From contig JAIVFI010000038.1 of the NCBI GenBank assembly GCA_025558095.1, positions 310,001 to 374,000 on the forward strand: 64,000 bases of DNA, in the 5' to 3' direction. Positions 22,426 to 41,420 of the stretch are shown here, in pieces. Within the stretch, counting starts at the first letter, position 1, and each line of letters opens with the position of its first letter. The position numbers were made by a program, and so were the translations under genes. The stretch is from Hyaloraphidium curvatum (lineage: Eukaryota; Monoblepharomycota; Hyaloraphidiomycetes; Hyaloraphidiales; Hyaloraphidiaceae). The notes under the pieces are model-generated. The model was not told where the DNA came from and did not search any database. It saw only the letters and a program-made list of their open reading frames with translations.

Positions 22426-23332
22426 AGGACCGTGATGGTCCAACTTGTTCATGGAAGGAAGCCCATTGGATTGCAATACGACATTGTTCTCTTGCCGTGT
22501 CGGCACCCGGATCGCAGCATCCCCTGACCTCCAGCAATCTATTGGGGAACGGAGAGGAGTGTCAGTTAATGGTCGACAAATCCCGGCAGCCGCCAGTCCA
22601 TCGCCGGGATCATTTTGAAGACTGAAGGTGTTCTTGTTTCTCCTCACTACCGAAGGTTCGGAGTGGTGCATAGAATATCTAATCCTCTCCCGAGCTCGCT
22701 CCTGCGTTCGCGACGCGGGTGCCTGACACTCACCGAGGAACATGCCGGACACGCAGACCAGACGGAGCGAGCAGCATCGACCGGAACCGCCGTTCCATGA
22801 AGCAAGCGAAGCAGCTGAAGTGCCGTCGGGAATCACTGGAAGTCAGGGAAACGAGGTCAGCGACGCGGTCTTTGTCACGTGTCCCGTTCCCGCAGTCCAG
22901 AGCCGGAACTCAATCTTAAAAAGCTCGGTTTGTGAATCAACACGGTGCTTTCAGACAGCAGTTGGAAAATTGACTTCATCCTCGTTCTCGAAATGTCCCA
23001 TCCCCGTCTGCAAAGGGTTCTCACCATTGGACGACGTTCGCGACTCCGGCCGGCCACCAATCGGCTCGGGGTCAGGGTGCATCATGGCAAGATGTACGGC
23101 AGCGTCGTCACGACGCGCCTTCGAGGAACATCACGGCATCGCGACGAGGAGCCGTTGTTGTCGTTTGTTTTCGCGGCCCGCACTCATCACTCCCTCGATA
23201 CCTCGCGATCGGCAGTCCTCTGTTGAGAACGAAATACAACTCATAATGCCATTCATCTGGGTATCCTTTGGACACTTCCCCATCTGATATCAAGAGTCCT
23301 CTTGAACAGAAAATTTTGAAAGATCGGTTTCT
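22426..23332. other. 0.9-kb convergent intergenic region
   Basis: This lies between the stops of MON2 (plus) and the UIM/zinc-finger gene (minus). It contains a plus-strand frame starting at an ATG at 22742 (181 codons) and minus-strand frames around 22875-23293, one of which includes a protein-like stretch (DEWHYELYFVLNRG). None has a recognisable motif or a convincing splice partner. A small gene here cannot be excluded. Confidence 0.4.
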
Positions 23333-28590: not shown

Positions 28591-31500
28591 CTACGAATCG
28601 TCGTCCAATCCCAGGTTGTTCCCCTCGTCCTCGGCAACGTCTTCCGCGAGACCGTCGGCATCGAACACGTCCGCTCCACCCTCTCCGCTTTCGCCCTCCT
28701 CATCTTGAGGCTCTGCCACGGGATGTGCAGCAGAGGGAGCGCCCGTTGGAGGCACCGGTCTCCAACAGGTCATCAGTGCCGGATCCCGTCCGCCAGCGAG
28801 GACCAGCGAATTCCCGTCTTCGTTTGCGCGAACGTAAGAGTTCCGAATGCTCCTCGAGCGCAGGGAAAAGGTGAGGCCGGGGCAACCAGCGGCGTAGATC
28901 GGTCTCGAAGGTCCTGGTGTGGGAAGGAAGCATGCGTCGTCTTTCCTCCTCAGCTTGTCGGTCACGATGAGCTTCGAGCGGTTGTCGGGGTCGACGGCGA
29001 CGAAGAAACCGGGCTTGGCGACGCTCTCGAAGGTAAAGTGGTAGTTGGCGCCGCAGATCGGGGCCAGGACCTTGAACGCGGCCCGCTTGTCGTCTTGCTG
29101 CACCGTCAGGTTGCCGCGGAAGAGGCCAACAGACAAGCTGTCCAAGTCAACGGCAATGTACTCTCGGTCCACGAGTCCGGTGGAATGGAAGCTGATCAAG
29201 TCGCCCAAGTTGATCGACTCGGCATTGATCCGAGGCCGGAACGCCTGGCCCCGCATGACGGCCGCCGAAGCTTCGCCTTTGACGCCGCAGGTGGTCACGC
29301 GCAGCTTCCCTGCCTTGGTGGCCGTCATGCACTTGCCGTCGCTCGCCGCGGAAGCGATGGCGATGCTCTCCGCCGCGATGGGTGAGCCTCCGTCCGGCGC
29401 GGCGACGACACCGGCGTTCAGAGACGACAACTGCCCCGTGGCATTGTCGTAGCGCCAGACGCCGTTGGGCAGGTCCGAATAGCACGGTGTCAGCACAATG
29501 CTGGACCGCGAGTTGACCGCCAAGCAAAGTCCGGAACTTGTCCGGAAGCTCTGCCCCAGAGGTTCCGCCGTCGACTGTCAAGTCGCGGAATCAATACCAC
29601 TGAACTCTCCAGCTTCGACGGCAATCTCACCAGGAAGATGGTCGCGTCGACCTTCTTCCGCAGCCTGCAAGCCGGGCCTTCACGGGAAAAGGCTCCGACG
29701 GCGGTCCCACAGCTCACGTAGCGGTCGCCAAATCTGATCCGGAAGTCATTGTCCTCCCCGCCGGCAAGGCCGGGTGCAGGTCCCTGGGAAGCCAAACGTG
29801 AGAAGGCAGTCATGAAGGCGGCGGAAAAGACATCACCTCGTCGTATCCCTGCGTCAAGGCAGGCACAACAGGAAGTTGATATGCCGATATCCGTTCCCCG
29901 AAAACTTCCCTGTCGCTGAGCCCGTCGAAGAAGTCTTCCGGAAGGGCACCGCCGCGCATCTGAAGTCTGCGACGGATCTGCTCCCTATGGAGCTCGATGC
30001 CGTCATCCAGGGTCATGTCGCGGGAGTCGAAAAGGATAGTGTCCAGCCCGTCCAAGAGCTGCCGTTTCCGAAAACGGAAGTGGCCGGGTGCCACAAAATC
30101 GACGTCGGCGAGGTCCCGCTTCGAAAGCTGCAGCAGCGTGAGCGCCTTCTCCGCCGCGCCACGCACGTTGCGGTCGAAAAACTCGCGCGCTGCCTTGCCC
30201 ACATCGGAAGCGTCGAGCGTAAAGTCCACGTCCACCTTCTCCCCGAAGAAGACGCCCTTGATCCGGATGCCGACGGATCCCGCCATGAACTTCGAGTTGA
30301 AGTCGGCGTCGACCGAGCCGACGAACCCGGCCGCGCTGAAGCTGATCATGGAACGCACCCGATCGCCCAGGAAGTCAGCCATCTTGGCGGCAGCCTTCAC
30401 GCCCTCCGAGATTCCCGCGAGACCCTGCTCCGAGGCCTGCAAGGCAACGGTCGCAATGTCCAAACCCCCTTGCGCAACGGTGCAGGCGCTCTGGCAGGCA
30501 GTGTTGACCACCAAGCCCGAAACCATGTTCCATCCCCTGCAGGCTCCGTTGGATATCGCCTGGACCTTGGCAGCCAGCTCGTTGCGGATCCGTTCGGCTT
30601 CACGCCTCGCGGCTTCGGCTGCTTCGCGCGCGGCACGTTCGGCCAACTCCCTGGCCCTTGCTGCCTCAGCCACGAGGCGTTCCTGGGCCTCCCTTGCAGC
30701 CCTCTCCGCGGCGTCCCGGATCCTTTGCGCCTCGCGCTGCGCCGCCTGAGCTGCCTCGATCGCCCTCCGCCGAGCTTCCTCCTGGAATCGTGCAGCGGCC
30801 TCTGCCGCTTCCCTTGCGCGTCTCTCGGTCTCCCGCGCCGCGTTTTCGGCTGCGATCCTAGCGGCTTCTGCCATCTCGCGCGCGCGTCTCTCCGTTTCGT
30901 CTTTCACCCGTTGAGCCTCCGCTTGCGCGGCCGCCGCGGCCGCGGCCAAAGCATCTCTGACCCTCTGTGCCTATGTTGAAATGACAATGTGGTTTGAAAC
31001 GTGGAGAAGACTTTAAGCTCCCGATCTCACCTGCGCTGCAGCAGCAGCAGCCATGGCTTCCTGGGCCCGCCTCGCTTGCTCCTGGGCCGCCTGCTGTGCA
31101 GCAGCTGCGGCTTCCTGCACGCGCCTCGCTTGCTCCTGGGCAGCCTTTTGGGCCGCTGCCATGGCTTCTTGCGCGCGCCTCGCCTGCTCTGCCGCTTGCT
31201 GCTGCACTCTCTCGGCCTCGCGCTTCGCAGCTTCCGCCGCTTCGCGAGCTTGCTTTTCCGCCAGATCCTTCACGCGCTGCGCCTCTCTCTGTGCAGCCTC
31301 GGCGGCCTCACGAGCCCTTCGCTCCATTTCCTCGCGCGCAATGCGCGCAGCCTCCGCCGCGCGGGCCGCCTGCTCGCGAGCAACACGCTCCGCTTCCGCT
31401 CGTGCCCTCGCCACGGCCGCCGCAGCCTGTTCGGCAGCGCGTCGTGCGGCGTCCGAGACGGTGTTGACCGCGCCCGAAGCAGCATTTCCGACGCTCCGAA

Positions 31501-34500
31501 ACGCGTTTGTAAAGGCTGACCAGCGCTTTTCCAGAACGATCGCTTCGAGGCGCTCTGCATCAGTGAGGTCCGCAGGGTCTTGCGGGGGCACAAGTGCCTC
31601 CTCTTGAAGCGGCAGCTCCGAACGGCGCACCCGGCGACGTCCGCAAGAGACTTTTTCCGCTGCTTCCGTGCACTTGTCCTTCCAATCGCACACCGACTTC
31701 CGCGCGTCGTCCACGGCACGTCGCTTGCTCTCAACCTCCCGCCTCGCGGAGTCCAGCTGGGCTGCGCCCTGCTTGGCCCAGGAACCAAGTGCTTCGAGCA
31801 CGCCGTCGACGAATTGCTGGAAAGACCGCATGTCGAAGTCCCCGGTTACAGAGAACTTGGACCGCGAACCAATCGCAGCCTGGAAGCGGAAGCTGACATC
31901 GAACACAAAGAACTTTTGCGAGAAAGAAAGGATGTACTCGGTCGGCGTGATGGAGACGATCGTCTCTAGCTGGAACATGAAAACCTTGACGTACGCCGAC
32001 AGCGTGAGTCCGAGCTCGGTGGCGCGGTCATACTCCAAAGCAACGTTGAGGATCGGTCCGCGGTCCGTGTCCTGCTTGCTCCGGTAGATCTCGATGAGCC
32101 CTCCCGCGAGCTTCACCGGATCAAGTTCGACAAGTAGCTTGATACCCCTGCCCATGCTGACGGAGATCTGGACCCGGGCTGTGACGTCCAAGATGTTCAG
32201 AGTCCCGTTCAGGAAAAAGCCCTGCTGATACTGCCGTCCCGGCGCCGCGCAGTTGCCCCCGGGGCACAGCGAAATGGATGTGGGTCCCGAGAACCCGCTG
32301 TTGAGCAGCGGCGCCGGGATGATGGAGGGGTCCGGCGCCACGTCCGTGAAGGCCAGGATGATGCGCTTGACATCCAGCTGCGTCATGTCGCCGGCGAACC
32401 AGTTGTTCTGAGGGTTCACGGGGTCGAACGACACGTAGATCGATCCCCCGATGCACGGCGCGTCCGGAAGGAAGGAGAAATCAGGGCCGTAGCAACCGCG
32501 CCCGATGGCGACCTGGCCGCCGACGAGGATCGACGGCGCGCCCAGGGCTGCGGTTATCCCGACCTCCAAGACAATGTTCCCAATGCTTAAGCGATCCCAA
32601 CCGAAAGCACTCCGCCAGATTCCAGTCATGGAAGCACCCAACACAACGCTGGCCCCCTTGACCCCGATCCGGGCTTGAAGCTGCAGCGGATCCCGGTCGG
32701 CATCGACGGTCAACGCGATAGAGCCAGAAAGGAACAGGGCGGTTGAGGGGAAGGAAGCGCTGAAGCCGACGGCGGTCAAGGTGAGCCCCGAGCTGATCCT
32801 GAGGTTCGAGACGGCGGCTGACAGCGCGATGTCCGGGGGGCTGATTCCGGCCCCGATCTGTAGCCGCACGTCGCGGCCGAGCAGGGAGACCATTACGTCG
32901 CAGAAGCCAGAACCTCCGCAATCGGAAGGGAGGCCCATTTGGAGACCGATCGACAGGCCGCGCTTGATCGAGGGAAGAAAATCGAGGGGCGCGTCGAGCA
33001 CCATTGGTCCGTCCAGGGCTAGATCGCGAGACGACGCGACGAAGGCCAGCTGCAAGAGCCGTCACGAATCAGACACCATCGATGTAGGGGCAGGAATGCA
33101 CTAAACACTCACAGTGCTGCCGGACGCCACAAGGTTGAGGCCAGGAATGGCAAACCCTGGCATCATGAGCTCCAGGAGGTCGGTGAAGAAGCTGCCCGGA
33201 AGCGCCAGGGCGAGGGTCCCCTGGAACCGGCCTCCGCTCTGCTTTCCCGCGAGCAGTTGCACCCGAGCGTTCTCAAAGAGGTCGGCGGTGGCGGCCACGC
33301 GGAGCATCGCCTGGCCGCTGCCCAGCGTGATGGAGATGTCGAAGTCGTTGAGCGCGAAGGTACGGAGCTCCAACTTGTCGATCAAGGCTTCGACCGGGCC
33401 TTCACGAATGTCATCAGCTCCACCATCAAGCTGATGGGTGCCGAGGACTTACCGGAGGGGAATATGTCGGCCCCGATCCCCGAAAGCAGCTTGTCGAATG
33501 GGAGGACATCCGAGCTGGCAGAGATCGTCCATGACTTGGAGCTCGTGGGCCCCTTGCCGGGCTTGCGGCGCGGTGCGGTCTTGGCCTGCGCTGCTCGGGC
33601 GTGGAGGCGTCGGGGTTCGGCGAGGACAAACGTCCCGTTCAGGCCCTGCCGACGCAGGTGGTCGCGGTAGAGATGGTGGTTGAGGTGCACCAAGGGTACG
33701 TCATGGAGCGAGAGGTGGCCCATGTAGCCAATGTCGGGCAGCTGTACCACGTGGTCCAAAGACCGAACGGTGAGCACCTCGGGGAGCAGGTCCGCCGCGG
33801 CGTCAGTGCCATCTCCAAGCTCGACAGCGGAATCTCCGTCCCTCGGATCCTCCGACCAACTCTGCTGACGGCGGTGAAGACGGCGGCGGCGTGACGCCAC
33901 TTCAGTGTCCGACTCGGGCTCGGCAAAGTCGTCCAACACGTCGGCGAATCCCACGCCCGCTTGCCTGCCGATGAAGACTTTCAGCGGGTTCCCCGCGAAG
34001 CTCCAGTCACCGTCGATGCGGACGTCGACCTCGCGCTGGGACGAGAAGGGTTCGACGACGGTAAAGACGACCGTCGGGTTGTCGAGCGACAGCGGCACGA
34101 GGTCCGACTGGAGCAGGCCGGGCGGCAGGAGAGCCCGCAGGGAAAGCCGCGTCGTGCACGGGGAAGCGCCCGGCCTGCAGAAGGAGAAGGCGAGATCCTT
34201 GATCTGGATGCCGAGCAGGGCGTCGAGGCCCGAGGAGAGCACGGGGATCTGGGGCAGGTCCGCCAGGGCCGCGTCGGCGCCCATCGCCTTGAGCGCCGAG
34301 CCAATCGTGGTCACCTTGTCCTGCATGCCGACACGCAGGATCATGCTCGCGGCGTCCGACATGAGGGGCAGCTTGAACGGCAGGCCGTTCTTGAAGAAGG
34401 GGAGGACGACGCTGCCCGAGAGCTCAAACCTGATGCTCGAAGGAGCATCGAAGCTGAATGAGGCCGAGTTGTTGACCAAGCCGAAGCCTGCTGGCAGCTC

Positions 34501-36954
34501 GATGTCGCTGGCGCTCAGGAGGATGCGCGCGGTCTGCACCGCGGGCGGTGCGGCAAAGTCGAGTGCGACGTTGCTGAGGGAGAGGATGTCGGGAAGGTAT
34601 CCGAAAACCTCGGGCAGGGCGACGTCCAGCTTGCCCAGGAGCCGCGTCGTGAGCCCCATGGCCGACTTCCACGAAAGCTGCAGTCCAGGGACCCGCAGTG
34701 CGAGGCGCCGTTCCGCGAGGGAACCGCCGCCGGCGCATTCGAGAGACACACCCGACTCGGCGAGCTTTGCCTTGACCGCGTTGGTAGCGAATTCGCCGAC
34801 CGAGGCCTTGGCATCCTCCAAGGAAGCATCCAGGTCGCGAGAGCGCAGCCGGCGAGCACCCTGCTGTTGGTCGGCCGCGGATTCCGGAGGCGCTGACGCA
34901 GAGCCCGCTTCCGATCCCGGGGCCGAACCTGTCCCCGAGTCGGAACCCGACCCGGTGGTTTCCGCATTCTGCTGCCCTTCCGAGGGCTCCTCTGCTCCGC
35001 CGTCCGCAGCCGACAAGGCGAGGACGACCTTGACCTCGGGATCCAGCTGGAACCTGTATATCGGCTTCGTGATGCACTCGATCGCGGCCTTGAGGTCCGG
35101 CGGCAGCAGCGCGCTCGCCTTGCCGAACGCGTCCAGGTCCGAGACCACGAGCACCAGGCCGGGCAGGTCGCCGTCCCCGCGCACGCTGGCGCAGGCGCTC
35201 GTCGCGGCGACCTTCTGCTCGGGGGTGAGCGCGCCCAGCGCAGACGAGAGGTCGGCGAGGCACGGGGCGACGGCGGTGCGGCTGGCGTTGGCCTGCTGCC
35301 CGAAGGCCGAGGCGGCGTCGGGTTCCATGCCGAGGATGCGTGCGAGGGCCATTGCGGCCGCCTGGGCGGGGTTGAGTTCCTTCTCACCCTCGGCTGGCGG
35401 GCTCGGTCAGGGCGACCGTCAGAATACGCCGAATCAGAACCAACCTTGCCCTTCTCCTTCGCTCTCCCCTTCCTCGCTCTCGGCTTCCTCGCTCTCGCCT
35501 TCCTCGCCCTCGCCTTCCTCGCCCTCGCCTTCCTCGCCCTCGCCTTCCTCGCCCTCGCCTTCCTCGCCCTCGCCTTCCTCGCCCTCGCCTTCCTCGCTCT
35601 CGCCTTCCTCGCCCTCGCCTTCCTCGCCCTCGCCTTCCTCGCTCTCGGATTCCCCGCTCTCGCCTTCCCCGCTCTCGCCTTCCCCGCTCTCGGCTTCCCC
35701 GCTCTCGGCTTCCTCACCATCGGCTTCTTCAGCTTCCCCCTCGGCCTCGCTCTCGGCTTCCTCGCTCTCGGCCTCGCCGCTCTCGGCTTCCTCGCCATCG
35801 GCTTCCTCGCTCTCGGCTTCCTCGCCATCGGCTTCTTCAGCTTCCCCCTCAGCCTCGCCATCACCAGCCTCGCCTTCGCCGGCCTCGCCTTCGCCCGCCT
35901 CGCCTTCGCGGGCCTCGCCTTCGCTGGCCTCGCCTTCGCTGGCCTCGTCGTCGCCGGCCTCGTCGTCACTGGCCTCGCTTTCCTCGTCCTTGTCCTCCGA
36001 TTCCTGGTCCCCGGAAGCTGGGCGCGCAACGTCAGACTCGTGCCGGGCCGGTCCGGTCCGGCCATCCCGAACGAACCGTCGTCATCCGCCTCCTGGTCCC
36101 CAGATTCCCGTCCCTCGGATTCCTGCTCCTCGGATGCGTCCTGGCCCTCGGGTTCCTGCTCTTCGGATCCGTCCTGGCCGTCGGATTCCTGCTCTTCGGA
36201 TCCGTCCTGGCCGTCGGATTCCTGCTCCTCGGACTCTTGCTCGCCGGACCCTTGTTCCGCGGAAGCTGGCCGCATACTGCGTCAGCGTCGGCTCGCGGCG
36301 GCGGGGCCGCAACGTCGACAAACCTTCGGCCTCGCCATCCCCGTCCTCCTCACCCTCATCGCCTTCCCCGCCATCTTCATCCCCGCCCTCGCTCTCCCCG
36401 CCCTCCCCGTCGCCGCCGCCCGCGGCATCGTCCTTGATGTCCTCGAGCTGGGCGTGGATGGCGGCCAGCCGCGCGGCGATCTCGTCCGCGACCGCCTGCT
36501 CCTCCTCCACCGCATCCGAGGTGCTCTCGAGGGTGTGGTCGTCGGCGTCCAATTGCTCGTCCGAGTCGTCGTCGCCGCCGCCCGAGGTGTCCGGGTCGCC
36601 GGCCGGGTCGTCGCCGGAGCCCTCCCCGTCCTCTCCGTCCCCGGTGTCCCCATCCTCCTCGGAATCGTCCCCATCCTCCCCATCATCGTCATCGTCGTCC
36701 CCGTCCCGCCTCCTCAGACCCTGTCCTCCGCCAGGGGTTCCCACTAGGGGACCCGCCAGCCCGGGCGACGCAGGCGGCCGCAGCGCGTTCGGAGCCGGCA
36801 ATGCCCTCGCCTCGACGAGCCCAAGGGCGGGGCCATCGATCCCGTCCCGCCGCGGCGCCCACGCGAGGAGCAGCAGCAGGCACGCGAGGGCGCGGAGCGG
36901 CGTCCCCCACGCGGGCCGGGCGGCGGCGGGGCGGCGCCCGCAATGTCTTCCCAT
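28591..36954 (-). CDS. giant secreted acidic-repeat protein with coiled-coil and beta-trefoil-like parts
   Basis: Nine exons all fit in phase: 36954-36324, 36265-36077, 36017-35445, 35393-33453, 33399-33113, 33049-31031, 30970-29837, 29783-29631, 29574-28591 (2,636 aa); introns 51-63 nt. A signal peptide (about residues 1-38, [12 protein letters not shown]) is followed by RRRD, a likely Kex2-type site, then Asp/Glu/Ser-rich sequence to about residue 465. Next come about 1,200 residues of amphipathic beta-rich sequence with further dibasic sites ([15 protein letters not shown]). An Ala/Arg/Glu coiled coil spans the exon 6/7 border. A second beta-rich part follows, then a C-terminal segment with SGLCLAVN and [13 protein letters not shown] that resembles an AbfB/ricin-type trefoil. 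No family is recognised for the central repeats. An extracellular structural or adhesive role is inferred. Confidence 0.78.
35461..35960. repeat. degenerate 15-bp tandem repeat inside the giant secreted gene
   Basis: Tandem copies of a 15-bp unit (plus strand GCCTTCCTCGCCCTC) are nearly perfect from about 35485 to 35640 and decay towards 35960. On the coding (minus) strand each unit encodes Gly-Glu-Gly-Glu-Glu; variants give Glu-Ser-Gly or Gly-Glu-Ala steps. Copy number is likely variable between strains. The plus strand reads as an uninterrupted hydrophobic frame here, which is an artefact. Confidence 0.85.
36115..36235. repeat. 33-bp tandem repeat (about 3.5 copies)
   Basis: Copies of a 33-bp unit encode the undecapeptide [11 protein letters not shown] on the minus strand, within exon 2 of the giant secreted protein. 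The copies differ by only a few bases, indicating recent expansion or gene conversion. Confidence 0.8.
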
Positions 36955-37105: not shown

Positions 37106-38964
37106 ATGGAGGCGAAGGTGCCGCCGCTGATGGGCGGCAAACGCGTTCCGGGCGATGGGAACGACGTGCCCCGCCGCGAGGGCGGCCGTTTTCCGTGGCG
37201 CGCCGGGGTCGCTGCCGTCGCCGCGTGTTTCCTGCTCGTCTTCCGCTGGCCGGCCCCGCACCCGCACGACGCGCCACGATTCGCCTACTCCAACGACGAT
37301 TTGACGCGTCTGCTCAAGCTGCGATCGCATTCGGACGTGTTCCCGCCCCGCCCAACGGGCGCCGGCGTCCCCCAGCCGGATGATCGCGGAGCCGCCGGCG
37401 GGCTGTACCCCGAACGCCGCCGCGTGGCCATCGTCGGCGCCGGCGCCTTCGGCTCCTCCCTCGCCTACTTCCTGCACCAGCTCATCCCGCCGACGGACCT
37501 CTCGATCACCGTGTTCGACAAGCTTCCCCGCGCCGGCGGCCGCGTGCGCGCGCTGGGCATGTACGACCCGTGCCGCGCCAAGCCCGTCGCGTTCGAGCTC
37601 GGCGCGGCCATCTTCGCGCAGGGCAACCAGTTCGTCGCCAACCTGACCCGCAAGTTCGGCCTCGACCTCAAGAACGAGTCGGACTTCGACCCCGACCCGC
37701 CCGGCACCCGGCTCGTCGGGCTGTGGGACGGCGAGTCGTTCCTGTACCAGTTCTCGGGCGGCTTCTGGAGCGGGCCTGCGGCCTTTTTGCGGTGGGGGCT
37801 GTCGATCGTCAACGGGCGCAACATGGCCGCCGAGGCCGAACGGGAGTGGGACCAGGTGTACGGGCTGCTCGCCGACGGCGAGACGTCGGGCAGCCCGGGT
37901 GCGATGCTGTCCAAGCTGGGCGGGCTGGACACGCTGGTGGCCGGAATGTCGGCGAGGGAGTACCTCGAGGGGCGGGGGCTGGGGGAGCGGTACCTGGACG
38001 AGTTTGTCGAGGTGCGTTGGCGGCGAGGATCGCAGGTTGATCTATCGGTCGGTCTGACGAGTTCCATCTCCGTTTTCACACAGCCCGCGGTTCTGGTCAA
38101 CTACTTTCGCCCCCTCTCGGCCATCAACCCCCTCGCCGCCCTCGTCAGCATGACGGCCGAGTACTCGGCCGCGTACCAGGTCCGCGACGGCAACTTCCAG
38201 GTGTTCGAGGAAGCCCTGCTCGCCTCCGGGGCCGGCTGGGTCAAGCAGGAGGAGATCGTGGCGATCAAGAGGGAGCCCGGGAGGGGGAAGGCAAAGTACA
38301 CGCTCGTCGGGGCGGACGGGAAGGACTGGATCGGATTCGATGACGTTGTTTTGGCGGGGCCGTTGGTGGGTCCCGCGTTTTCTGCCGCCCGCTCTGTTCA
38401 CAATCTGACCACTCGGCTTCGCAGCACACGCTCAACGTCTCCCTGCCCGACGACATCCCGCCGCCCTTCTACCCGCGCCCGTACGTCGAGATCCACGTGA
38501 CCATCGTCGTCGGCATCCTCTCGCCGGAATACTTTGGCCTCCCCCCGCTCGCCTCCCCCCCGCTCAACATCCTCACCCCGCAAAACACCGCCTCCCCCGT
38601 GCCCTTCCGCTCCATCTCGGTGCTGCACCGCTTCCCGTGCCTCAACCACGGCGCCAACATCACCGTCACCAAGATCTTCTCCGCCCTGCCCATGCAGACC
38701 GCCGACCTGCTCGCGATCTACGAGAAGGTGTACGACCTGGCGCGGTACGCGTGGCCGGCCGCTTACCCGGACCTGGCGCCGTATTCGAGCCCGGAGGAGA
38801 TGCCGGGCTTCGGGCCGTACGGGGACGGCGTGTACTTCGGGGGGGCGGGCGAGGCGCCGTTCAGCTGCATGGAGGGGCAGGTGGTGGCGGCGAGGAACGT
38901 GGCGGGGCTGATCGCGGAGCAGGTTGCGAGGGCGAAGAAGGAGGCGGCGGGGACGAGGGGATGA
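37106..38964 (+). CDS. prenylcysteine oxidase / FAD-dependent amine-oxidase-like protein
   Basis: Three exons in phase: 37106-38011, 38084-38365, 38425-38964 (575 aa), introns 72 and 59 nt. A hydrophobic N-terminal segment (about residues 30-48, AGVAAVAACFLLVF) suggests a signal anchor or signal peptide. The FAD-binding Rossmann motif is RVAIVGAGAFGSSLAYFL, followed by the VFDKLPRAGGRV segment. ELGAAIFAQGNQFVANLTRKFG and the GDGVYFGGAGEAPFSCMEGQVVAARNVA C-terminus are typical of the PCYOX/prenylcysteine-lyase branch. Such enzymes oxidise the thioether of prenylcysteine released from degraded prenylated proteins, in lysosome-like compartments. The exact substrate is inferred. The first exon is in frame with a very long antisense-derived frame starting at 33905, which should not be fused to it. 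Confidence 0.85.
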
Positions 38965-40364: not shown

Positions 40365-40862
40365 AGTTGTGTTCGGACGATGAGAGAGCTGGCCGTGCGT
40401 CCCGCTTCCATATCCCGATCAAGATCCACTCGTGCCTGCTTTCCGCACTGAGATATTGATGCGCCGGAAGAGATGCCCGGATGGGTAAAACCCGACTCGT
40501 TATCGTGTGCTCGGTCATGTCATCCACCCGTTGGGCCGTAGACGCCGTTCGGCAGCATCCGTTTCGAGGAGCACGTACAGGAGCACCTACAGAGAAGTGG
40601 GTACGCTTGATTGAACGGTAGTACGCAATGTTTCAGGTCGAATGCTCCATGAATGATTGTCCATTGTTCCGGAGATGTTCCGCTGTAGATGTTCCGCAGA
40701 ACCTTGCACTGCCCATCCACAGACGCCTGCTCGCAAGTGTCGGCACCACCCCATCTGCACCATTTCATTTGTCTCCGCCCGAGACCGGTCGTCACGGCGG
40801 TCCCGTCGTTGTGTCGCCTCTCCGCCAGCAGATTGCCCGCATTCTCCTGTGCAAGACTCGAC
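40365..40862. promoter_or_regulatory. divergent intergenic region
   Basis: About 500 bp separate the F-box-like gene (minus) and the chlorite-dismutase-family gene (plus). An in-frame ATG at 40689 would extend the latter by 58 residues. Otherwise no gene is seen. Confidence 0.4.
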
Positions 40863-41420
40863 ATGCCACCCCCCCTCCCCGTCACGTTCGTCGCCGGCGA
40901 CGTCGGTCCCTGGCGGATCCTGCGCAACGCACCCTATAAAGGCGACGGTCTCCCGGTCGCCGAGCGGTTGCTGGTGCTCGAGGGGTCACAATCGCGGCCG
41001 CCGCCCGCGGCCGCATGGACCCTTTCGGGCACTACAAGCAACGGCCGCTACATCAATCACGGAGAGCAGGATGCGCTCCGAGCCCGCCAGGCGGGGTTGG
41101 GACGCCCCGAGGCCCGCCTTGCCGCCCTGATCCCCATCCGCAAGACCGACCGCTGGTGGGACATGCCTCAGGACGAGCGGCGCGCCGTGTTCGAGGAGCG
41201 CTCGCACCACATCGGCATCGGCATGGAGTACATCTCGGCGGTGGCCCGACGGCTGTATCATTGTCGGGACCTGGGCGGTCCCTTTGACTTCCTCACCTGG
41301 TTCGAGTACCCGCCCGAGGCGGCAGAGGCCTTTGAGGAGATGGTCGCCCGGCTGCGCGCCACCGAGGAGTGGGACTATGTCGACCTCGAGCTCGACATTC
41401 GCCTCATTCGCGAAACTTAG
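40863..41420 (+). CDS. chlorite-dismutase-family (heme-type) protein
   Basis: Intronless frame of 185 aa from the ATG at 40863. Diagnostic segments are NGRYINHGEQDAL, ALIPIRKTDRWWDM, FEERSHHIGIGMEYI, RRLYHCRDLGGPFDFLTWFEYPPE and FEEMVARLRATEEWDYV. This is the chlorite dismutase / heme-binding superfamily, and the wording is close to a bacterial (proteobacterial-type) subgroup as I recall it. Members bind heme b; physiological roles outside true chlorite dismutases are mostly unknown. An in-frame ATG at 40689 would add an Arg/Ser/Pro-rich leader lacking acidic residues near its start, resembling a mitochondrial presequence. Few eukaryotic members are known to me, so bacterial origin by transfer is a good hypothesis. 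Confidence 0.82.
   Translation: MPPPLPVTFVAGDVGPWRILRNAPYKGDGLPVAERLLVLEGSQSRPPPAAAWTLSGTTSNGRYINHGEQDALRARQAGLGRPEARLAALIPIRKTDRWWDMPQDERRAVFEERSHHIGIGMEYISAVARRLYHCRDLGGPFDFLTWFEYPPEAAEAFEEMVARLRATEEWDYVDLELDIRLIRET

What the first reader, a model, noticed from the sequence alone, without database searches (positions are those of the whole stretch)
28591..36954. A 2,636-aa secreted protein of unrecognised architecture
Nine exons join with consistent phases into a single protein. It has a signal peptide, a probable Kex2 site, about 430 residues of Asp/Glu/Ser repeats, and more than 1,000 residues of amphipathic beta-rich sequence with dibasic sites. A long Ala/Arg/Glu coiled coil and a C-terminal trefoil-like part complete it. 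I cannot assign the central domains. The dibasic sites suggest processing into several mature chains. It is the largest coding investment in the window and a good candidate for an undescribed extracellular matrix, adhesion or mineral-binding system.
Basis: partly seen in the sequence, partly recalled or inferred. Interest (0 to 1): 0.65.

Follow-up and report, generated by a model that had tools for sequence, protein, structure and literature searches.

The report
Giant secreted fungal protein family member
This is one member of a family of at least 13 very large, probably secreted fungal proteins that pair an unclassified disulfide-containing, strand-rich core with a lectin-like tail, most likely cell-surface or matrix proteins, although nothing about their function has been tested.

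Summary
Four of its eight introns sit at the same position and phase in paralogues, on both sides of the core-to-tail junction, so this is one gene. The genome is fungal. The protein is not alone: at least nine full-length co-linear members (39-48% identical) plus four distant members that keep the core but lack the tail. Twenty-five cysteines are conserved, and recent copies are under purifying selection (dN/dS 0.19-0.26). The C-terminus is probably two beta-trefoils, the first ricin-B-like but with degenerate QxW motifs. The core matches nothing in Pfam, NCBIfam, the PDB, or the bacterial, viral and plasmid sequences searched. A ~280-residue Ala/Arg/Glu helical rod is expanded in this member. 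Best reading: a secreted, kexin-trimmed surface or matrix protein that binds glycans or another ligand through its C-terminus. The core fold is unsolved; single-sequence AlphaFold failed. No transcripts or eukaryote protein database were available.

The parts
28591..36954 (-). Whole gene: nine exons, 2,636-aa protein
   Evidence: shared introns; paralogues
36805..36954 (-). N-terminal leader with hydrophobic core [11 protein letters not shown] (signal peptide by eye)
   Evidence: Sequence; comparable leaders in C22 and C8 members
35445..36717 (-). Acidic Glu/Gly/Asp/Ala/Ser repeat block, aa ~80-465, interrupted by two introns
   Evidence: net -178; tandem repeats; acidic blocks also in C22 and C1 members
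33891..34737 (-). Strand-rich core, N-terminal half, aa ~684-966
   Evidence: Conserved in paralogues; no Pfam match
33534..33890 (-). Linker rich in dibasic sites between core halves, aa ~967-1085
   Evidence: Dibasic cluster at 967 kept in 6 of 9 members
31633..33533 (-). Strand-rich core, C-terminal half, aa ~1086-1680, with the G-x-W-x-x-AFG-x-x-R-x-x-[VI]GN motif shared by both subfamilies
   Evidence: no Pfam, NCBIfam or PDB match
30557..31462 (-). Ala/Arg/Glu/Gln helical rod, aa ~1737-2018; expanded in this member only
   Evidence: 3.64-residue periodicity, repeats of 18 and 22 aa; a short linker in paralogues
29936..30556 (-). Cys-containing helical plus strand segment, aa ~2018-2225, with conserved KR site at ~2182 (30062-30067)
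   Evidence: Conserved Cys 2024, 2039, 2043 and dibasic sites
29233..29756 (-). First beta-trefoil, ricin-B-like, aa ~2268-2423, interrupted by intron 29630-29575
   Evidence: Ricin_B_lectin in 7 of 7 members, best E 2.8e-5, window member under the curated cut-off
28732..29232 (-). Second probable beta-trefoil, aa ~2424-2590
   Evidence: AbfB (trefoil fold) in 5 of 7 members, best E 0.022; only PDB hit is the trefoil IL-36, E 0.81; all weak
28594..28704 (-). Short acidic C-terminal tail; no hydrophobic GPI-type end
   Evidence: Sequence and hydropathy

Best explanation
A very large secreted fungal cell-surface or extracellular-matrix protein of a paralogous family. Proposed working: the leader sends it to the secretory pathway (inferred); the disulfide-bonded strand-rich core folds as the structural body (inferred from conserved Cys); kexin trims it at conserved dibasic sites between core, helical segment and tail, and the pieces may stay associated (inferred); the tandem-trefoil tail binds glycans or another surface ligand (inferred from fold-level similarity); the acidic block and, in this member, a helical rod of about 40 nm act as charged spacer and stalk that present the binding tail (inferred). 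Shown here: gene model, family, conservation, purifying selection among recent copies, trefoil-type signal, presence of P-domain (kexin-type) genes in the genome.
For: Single gene with introns shared by paralogues; family of nine or more co-linear members with tandem and inverted copies on contigs C1 and C3; 25 conserved Cys; dN/dS 0.19-0.26 among C1 copies; ricin-B/AbfB trefoil signals; C8 and C10 relatives carry a Thr-rich stalk, and C8 a leader; P-domain genes in the genome; no transmembrane-type hydrophobic stretch over KD 1.6 except one borderline window at 1365. Known fungal adhesins commonly have a signal, repeats, Cys-rich regions and dibasic sites, and some fission-yeast adhesins lack GPI and end in lectin-like domains (PMC6023273).
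Against: No GPI signal and no Ser/Thr-rich glycosylated stalk in this member; only 7 N-glycosylation sequons in 2,636 residues, three conserved. The QxW motifs are degenerate (QxF / NGxW / QxF), so sugar binding is uncertain. No structure, localisation or expression data. The core could have an unrelated activity.
Confidence: 0.42

Rival explanations
1. A secreted chimerolectin-type defence or effector protein: the trefoil tail binds glycans on another organism and delivers an active core, with kexin cleavage as activation.
For: The fungal toxin CCTX2 combines several beta-trefoils with a domain of unknown function and a KR site cleaved by Kex2p (PMC13324453). Here too trefoils sit beside an unclassified domain with conserved dibasic sites, in a duplicating family.
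Against: Size and domain order differ (787 aa with N-terminal trefoils in CCTX2); defence lectins are described as cytoplasmic (PMC13324453) whereas this has a leader; no toxin domain was found; no QxW triad.
Confidence: 0.15
2. A secreted or surface lipid- or hydrophobe-binding protein in which the amphipathic strand-rich core forms a groove, with the tail as a docking module.
For: About 1,000 residues rich in alternating hydrophobic stretches.
Against: No profile link to any lipid-transfer family; the structure models are unusable.
Confidence: 0.13
3. A polyanionic precursor from which kexin releases several independently acting mature chains, such as a mineral- or cation-binding acidic chain.
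For: Net charge -178 over 386 residues and conserved dibasic sites; P-domain genes.
Against: The acidic block varies strongly among paralogues while core and tail are conserved; no repeated peptides bracketed by Kex2 sites were seen, which KEPs require (PMC6339444).
Confidence: 0.12

Closest known systems
Fungal cell-surface adhesins, especially the non-GPI fission-yeast family with C-terminal lectin-like or DIPSY domains (PMC6023273)
   Same: Large secreted modular protein, internal repeats, conserved Cys, dibasic sites, ligand-type C-terminus, multigene family
   Different: Acidic block and helical rod in place of a Ser/Thr stalk, unclassified ~1,000-aa core, no GPI, no shown adhesion; sequence homology to them was not tested directly
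Ricin-B (R-type) beta-trefoil lectin domain, Pfam PF00652
   Same: First C-terminal unit matches in 7 of 7 members, best E 2.8e-5
   Different: Window member below the curated cut-off (23 against 29 bits), QxW triad degenerate
CCTX2 chimerolectins of Coprinopsis cinerea (PMC13324453)
   Same: Multiple trefoils next to a domain of unknown function, kexin site
   Different: Four N-terminal trefoils, 787 aa, described as a cytoplasmic-type defence toxin; no tested sequence relation
Kex2-processed repeat proteins (KEPs, PMC6339444)
   Same: Leader and several dibasic sites
   Different: No repeats separated by Kex2 sites were seen; long conserved domains instead

Membership tests
Ricin-B lectin (PF00652) | Score above Pfam's gathering cut-off | tested here: not met
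   23 bits against a cut-off of 29 in the window member
Ricin-B lectin (PF00652) | Three QxW repeats | tested here: not met
   QxF, NGxW and QxF in the alignment
Ricin-B lectin (PF00652) | Beta-trefoil fold | tested here: inconclusive
   Sub-threshold Ricin_B and AbfB matches; AlphaFold model unusable, pLDDT 35
Fungal adhesin | Secretion leader | tested here: met
   Read directly from the sequence, with similar leaders in C22 and C8 relatives; no SignalP available
Fungal adhesin | GPI addition signal (common, not universal; PMC6023273) | tested here: not met
   C-terminus ends in NNLGLDDDS; no hydrophobic window there
Fungal adhesin | Internal repeats, conserved Cys, dibasic sites | tested here: met
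Fungal adhesin | Adhesion activity | not testable with these tools
   Needs experiment
KEP (Kex2-processed repeat protein) | Three or more repeats separated by KR/RR sites | tested here: not met
   The repeats (acidic block, rod) are not units bracketed by conserved dibasic sites, which lie mostly at domain borders; the published pipeline itself was not run
CCTX chimerolectin | Homology of the non-lectin domain to the CCTX2 C-terminal domain | not tested
   The PDB profile search of the core gave no such hit, but whether the CCTX2 structure is in that copy was not checked
The family defined here | Core motif, conserved Cys and (subfamily A) twin-trefoil tail | tested here: met

The most novel reading that the evidence does not exclude
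The ~1,000-residue core is a previously unclassified extracellular domain superfamily, restricted to a group of fungi, used in at least two architectures (with an acidic N-terminus and twin-trefoil tail; with a Thr-rich stalk and a different C-terminus), and forms a major component of this fungus's surface.
Probability: 0.35. Interest if true: 0.55.

Novelty: new variant of a known kind. Interest (0 to 1): 0.42.

Why it matters
Adhesins outside Ascomycota are sparsely described (PMC6023273). A family of giant proteins with an unclassified core and two architectures gives a concrete, testable set of candidates for how this fungus builds or decorates its surface, and a possible new Pfam family. 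It matters less if the core proves to be a diverged known fold, or if homologues are already described elsewhere; neither could be checked here because no eukaryote protein collection was available.

Tried and rejected
Several genes instead of one: rejected, introns and domain order are shared with paralogues. Coding on the plus strand (a 1,540-aa antisense frame): rejected, since the minus-strand frames are the ones conserved; the true plus-strand gene there is the divergent prenylcysteine lyase. Viral, bacterial or plasmid origin: no relatives. Internal repeats in the core: hhalign self-comparison gave probabilities of at most 0.7%. LamG-like N-terminus in C8: by eye only, Pfam found nothing. 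Organism by 18S or mitochondrial contig: the 18S search failed twice, no cox1 match in the assembly; a guess at Hyaloraphidium could not be tested. KEP membership: not met.

Full report
Observation. I rebuilt the gene from the minus strand. Enumerating GT-AG introns that keep the frame open gives the nine-exon model. Paralogues settle the ambiguous fourth intron (FPS|GPVEAIIDK).

One gene. The same query hits eight other loci in the same 31.9-Mb, 55-contig genome with E-values from 1e-159 to 1e-56, and weaker ones at C10, C8 (two) and C34. Window introns after aa 1111 (phase 1), 1207 (phase 0), 2258 (phase 0) and 2309 (phase 0) recur at the same place and phase in these genes. The core-to-tail order is therefore an old family property. 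The introns in the acidic block and rod are specific to this member and rest on open frame and splice consensus alone.

Host. More than 70 Fungal_trans matches and several chitin synthase loci make it a fungus. No radial-spoke match was found, but that search had no positive control. The species was not determined.

Anatomy. Leader; acidic Glu/Gly/Asp block (net -178); conserved unit at ~480-590; strand-rich core ~680-1680 with a dibasic linker; Ala/Arg/Glu rod ~1737-2018 with helical period 3.64; Cys-containing helical/strand segment ~2018-2225; two trefoil-type units ~2268-2590; acidic tail. Domain limits are approximate and read from alignments. Twenty-five Cys are conserved in at least eight of nine rows, many as close pairs, which suggests disulfides and an extracellular site.

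Family. A tree of the core separates nine subfamily-A rows from C10, C8 and C34 (subfamily B) with full support; branching within A is mostly unresolved. Subfamily B keeps the core motif and the Cys-containing segment but not the trefoils, and carries a Thr-rich stalk; the C8 member has a clear leader. C1 members carry extra Cys-rich modules (CPxGxxxFGDxxGGFCC...) between acidic block and core. C21 holds a trefoil tail without a detectable core. C1 copies show dN/dS 0.19-0.26, so they are maintained.

Known families. The core gives no Pfam, NCBIfam or PDB match worth the name, and no relative among the bacterial, archaeal, viral or plasmid sequences searched. The tail matches Ricin_B_lectin in all seven members scanned and AbfB in five; the window member scores under the curated cut-off. 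Both are trefoil folds. The QxW triad that marks sugar-binding R-type lectins (PMC13324453) is degenerate. The fold is thus likely and sugar binding is open. Single-sequence AlphaFold models were unusable.

Mechanism. I favour a secreted, kexin-trimmed surface or matrix protein whose tail binds a ligand and whose acidic block and rod act as spacer. Conserved dibasic sites near 1678, 2182 and 2218 and P-domain genes in the genome fit processing; neither cleavage nor binding is shown. Some conserved dibasic sites lie inside domains (693, 1236, 2518), so conservation alone does not prove cleavage. Adhesins of fungi often have a leader, repeats, Cys-rich regions and dibasic motifs, none universal (PMC6023273). 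Defence chimerolectins such as CCTX2 (PMC13324453), lipid binding, and release of an acidic chain remain as rivals.

Limits. No transcript, proteome or eukaryote protein database was available, so lineage restriction and novelty of the core are provisional. The paralogue gene models come from one scoring scheme of mine, and their N-terminal parts are unreliable. Counts of family members are lower bounds (note).

Noticed in passing
window 40689-41417 (+): Chlorite-dismutase-like frame (PF06778, E 1e-8); this looked unusual to me for a fungus.
   Followed up: no
window ~37107-38961 (+): Prenylcysteine lyase gene (PF07156) head-to-head with the large gene, start codons about 150 bp apart by eye.
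   Followed up: partly
L017-L020 (contig C1, 122.5-139.5 kb and 153-169 kb): Two tandem pairs of paralogues in opposite orientation, with repeated Cys-rich modules CPxGxxxFGDxxGGFCC.
   Followed up: partly
L021 and L029 (contig C3, 218.5-225.5 kb and 225.5-234.5 kb): Near-identical inverted pair of paralogues (dS 0.037), a recent duplication.
   Followed up: partly
L024 (contig C8, 262-269.5 kb): Subfamily-B member with leader, a LamG-like stretch by eye (not confirmed by Pfam) and a Thr-rich stalk.
   Followed up: partly
L028 (contig C21, ~204.1-205.0 kb): Twin-trefoil tail without a detectable core: a fragment or a separate gene.
   Followed up: partly
window 36324-36240 and 36077-35990: The first two intron acceptors and following exon starts look alike (GCCAGCTTCCG / CCCAGCTTCCG), suggesting an exon duplicated with its intron end; read by eye.
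   Followed up: no
window 22905-22987 (-): SNORD36-type snoRNA just above Rfam's cut-off (30.7 against 30 bits, E 0.69).
   Followed up: no
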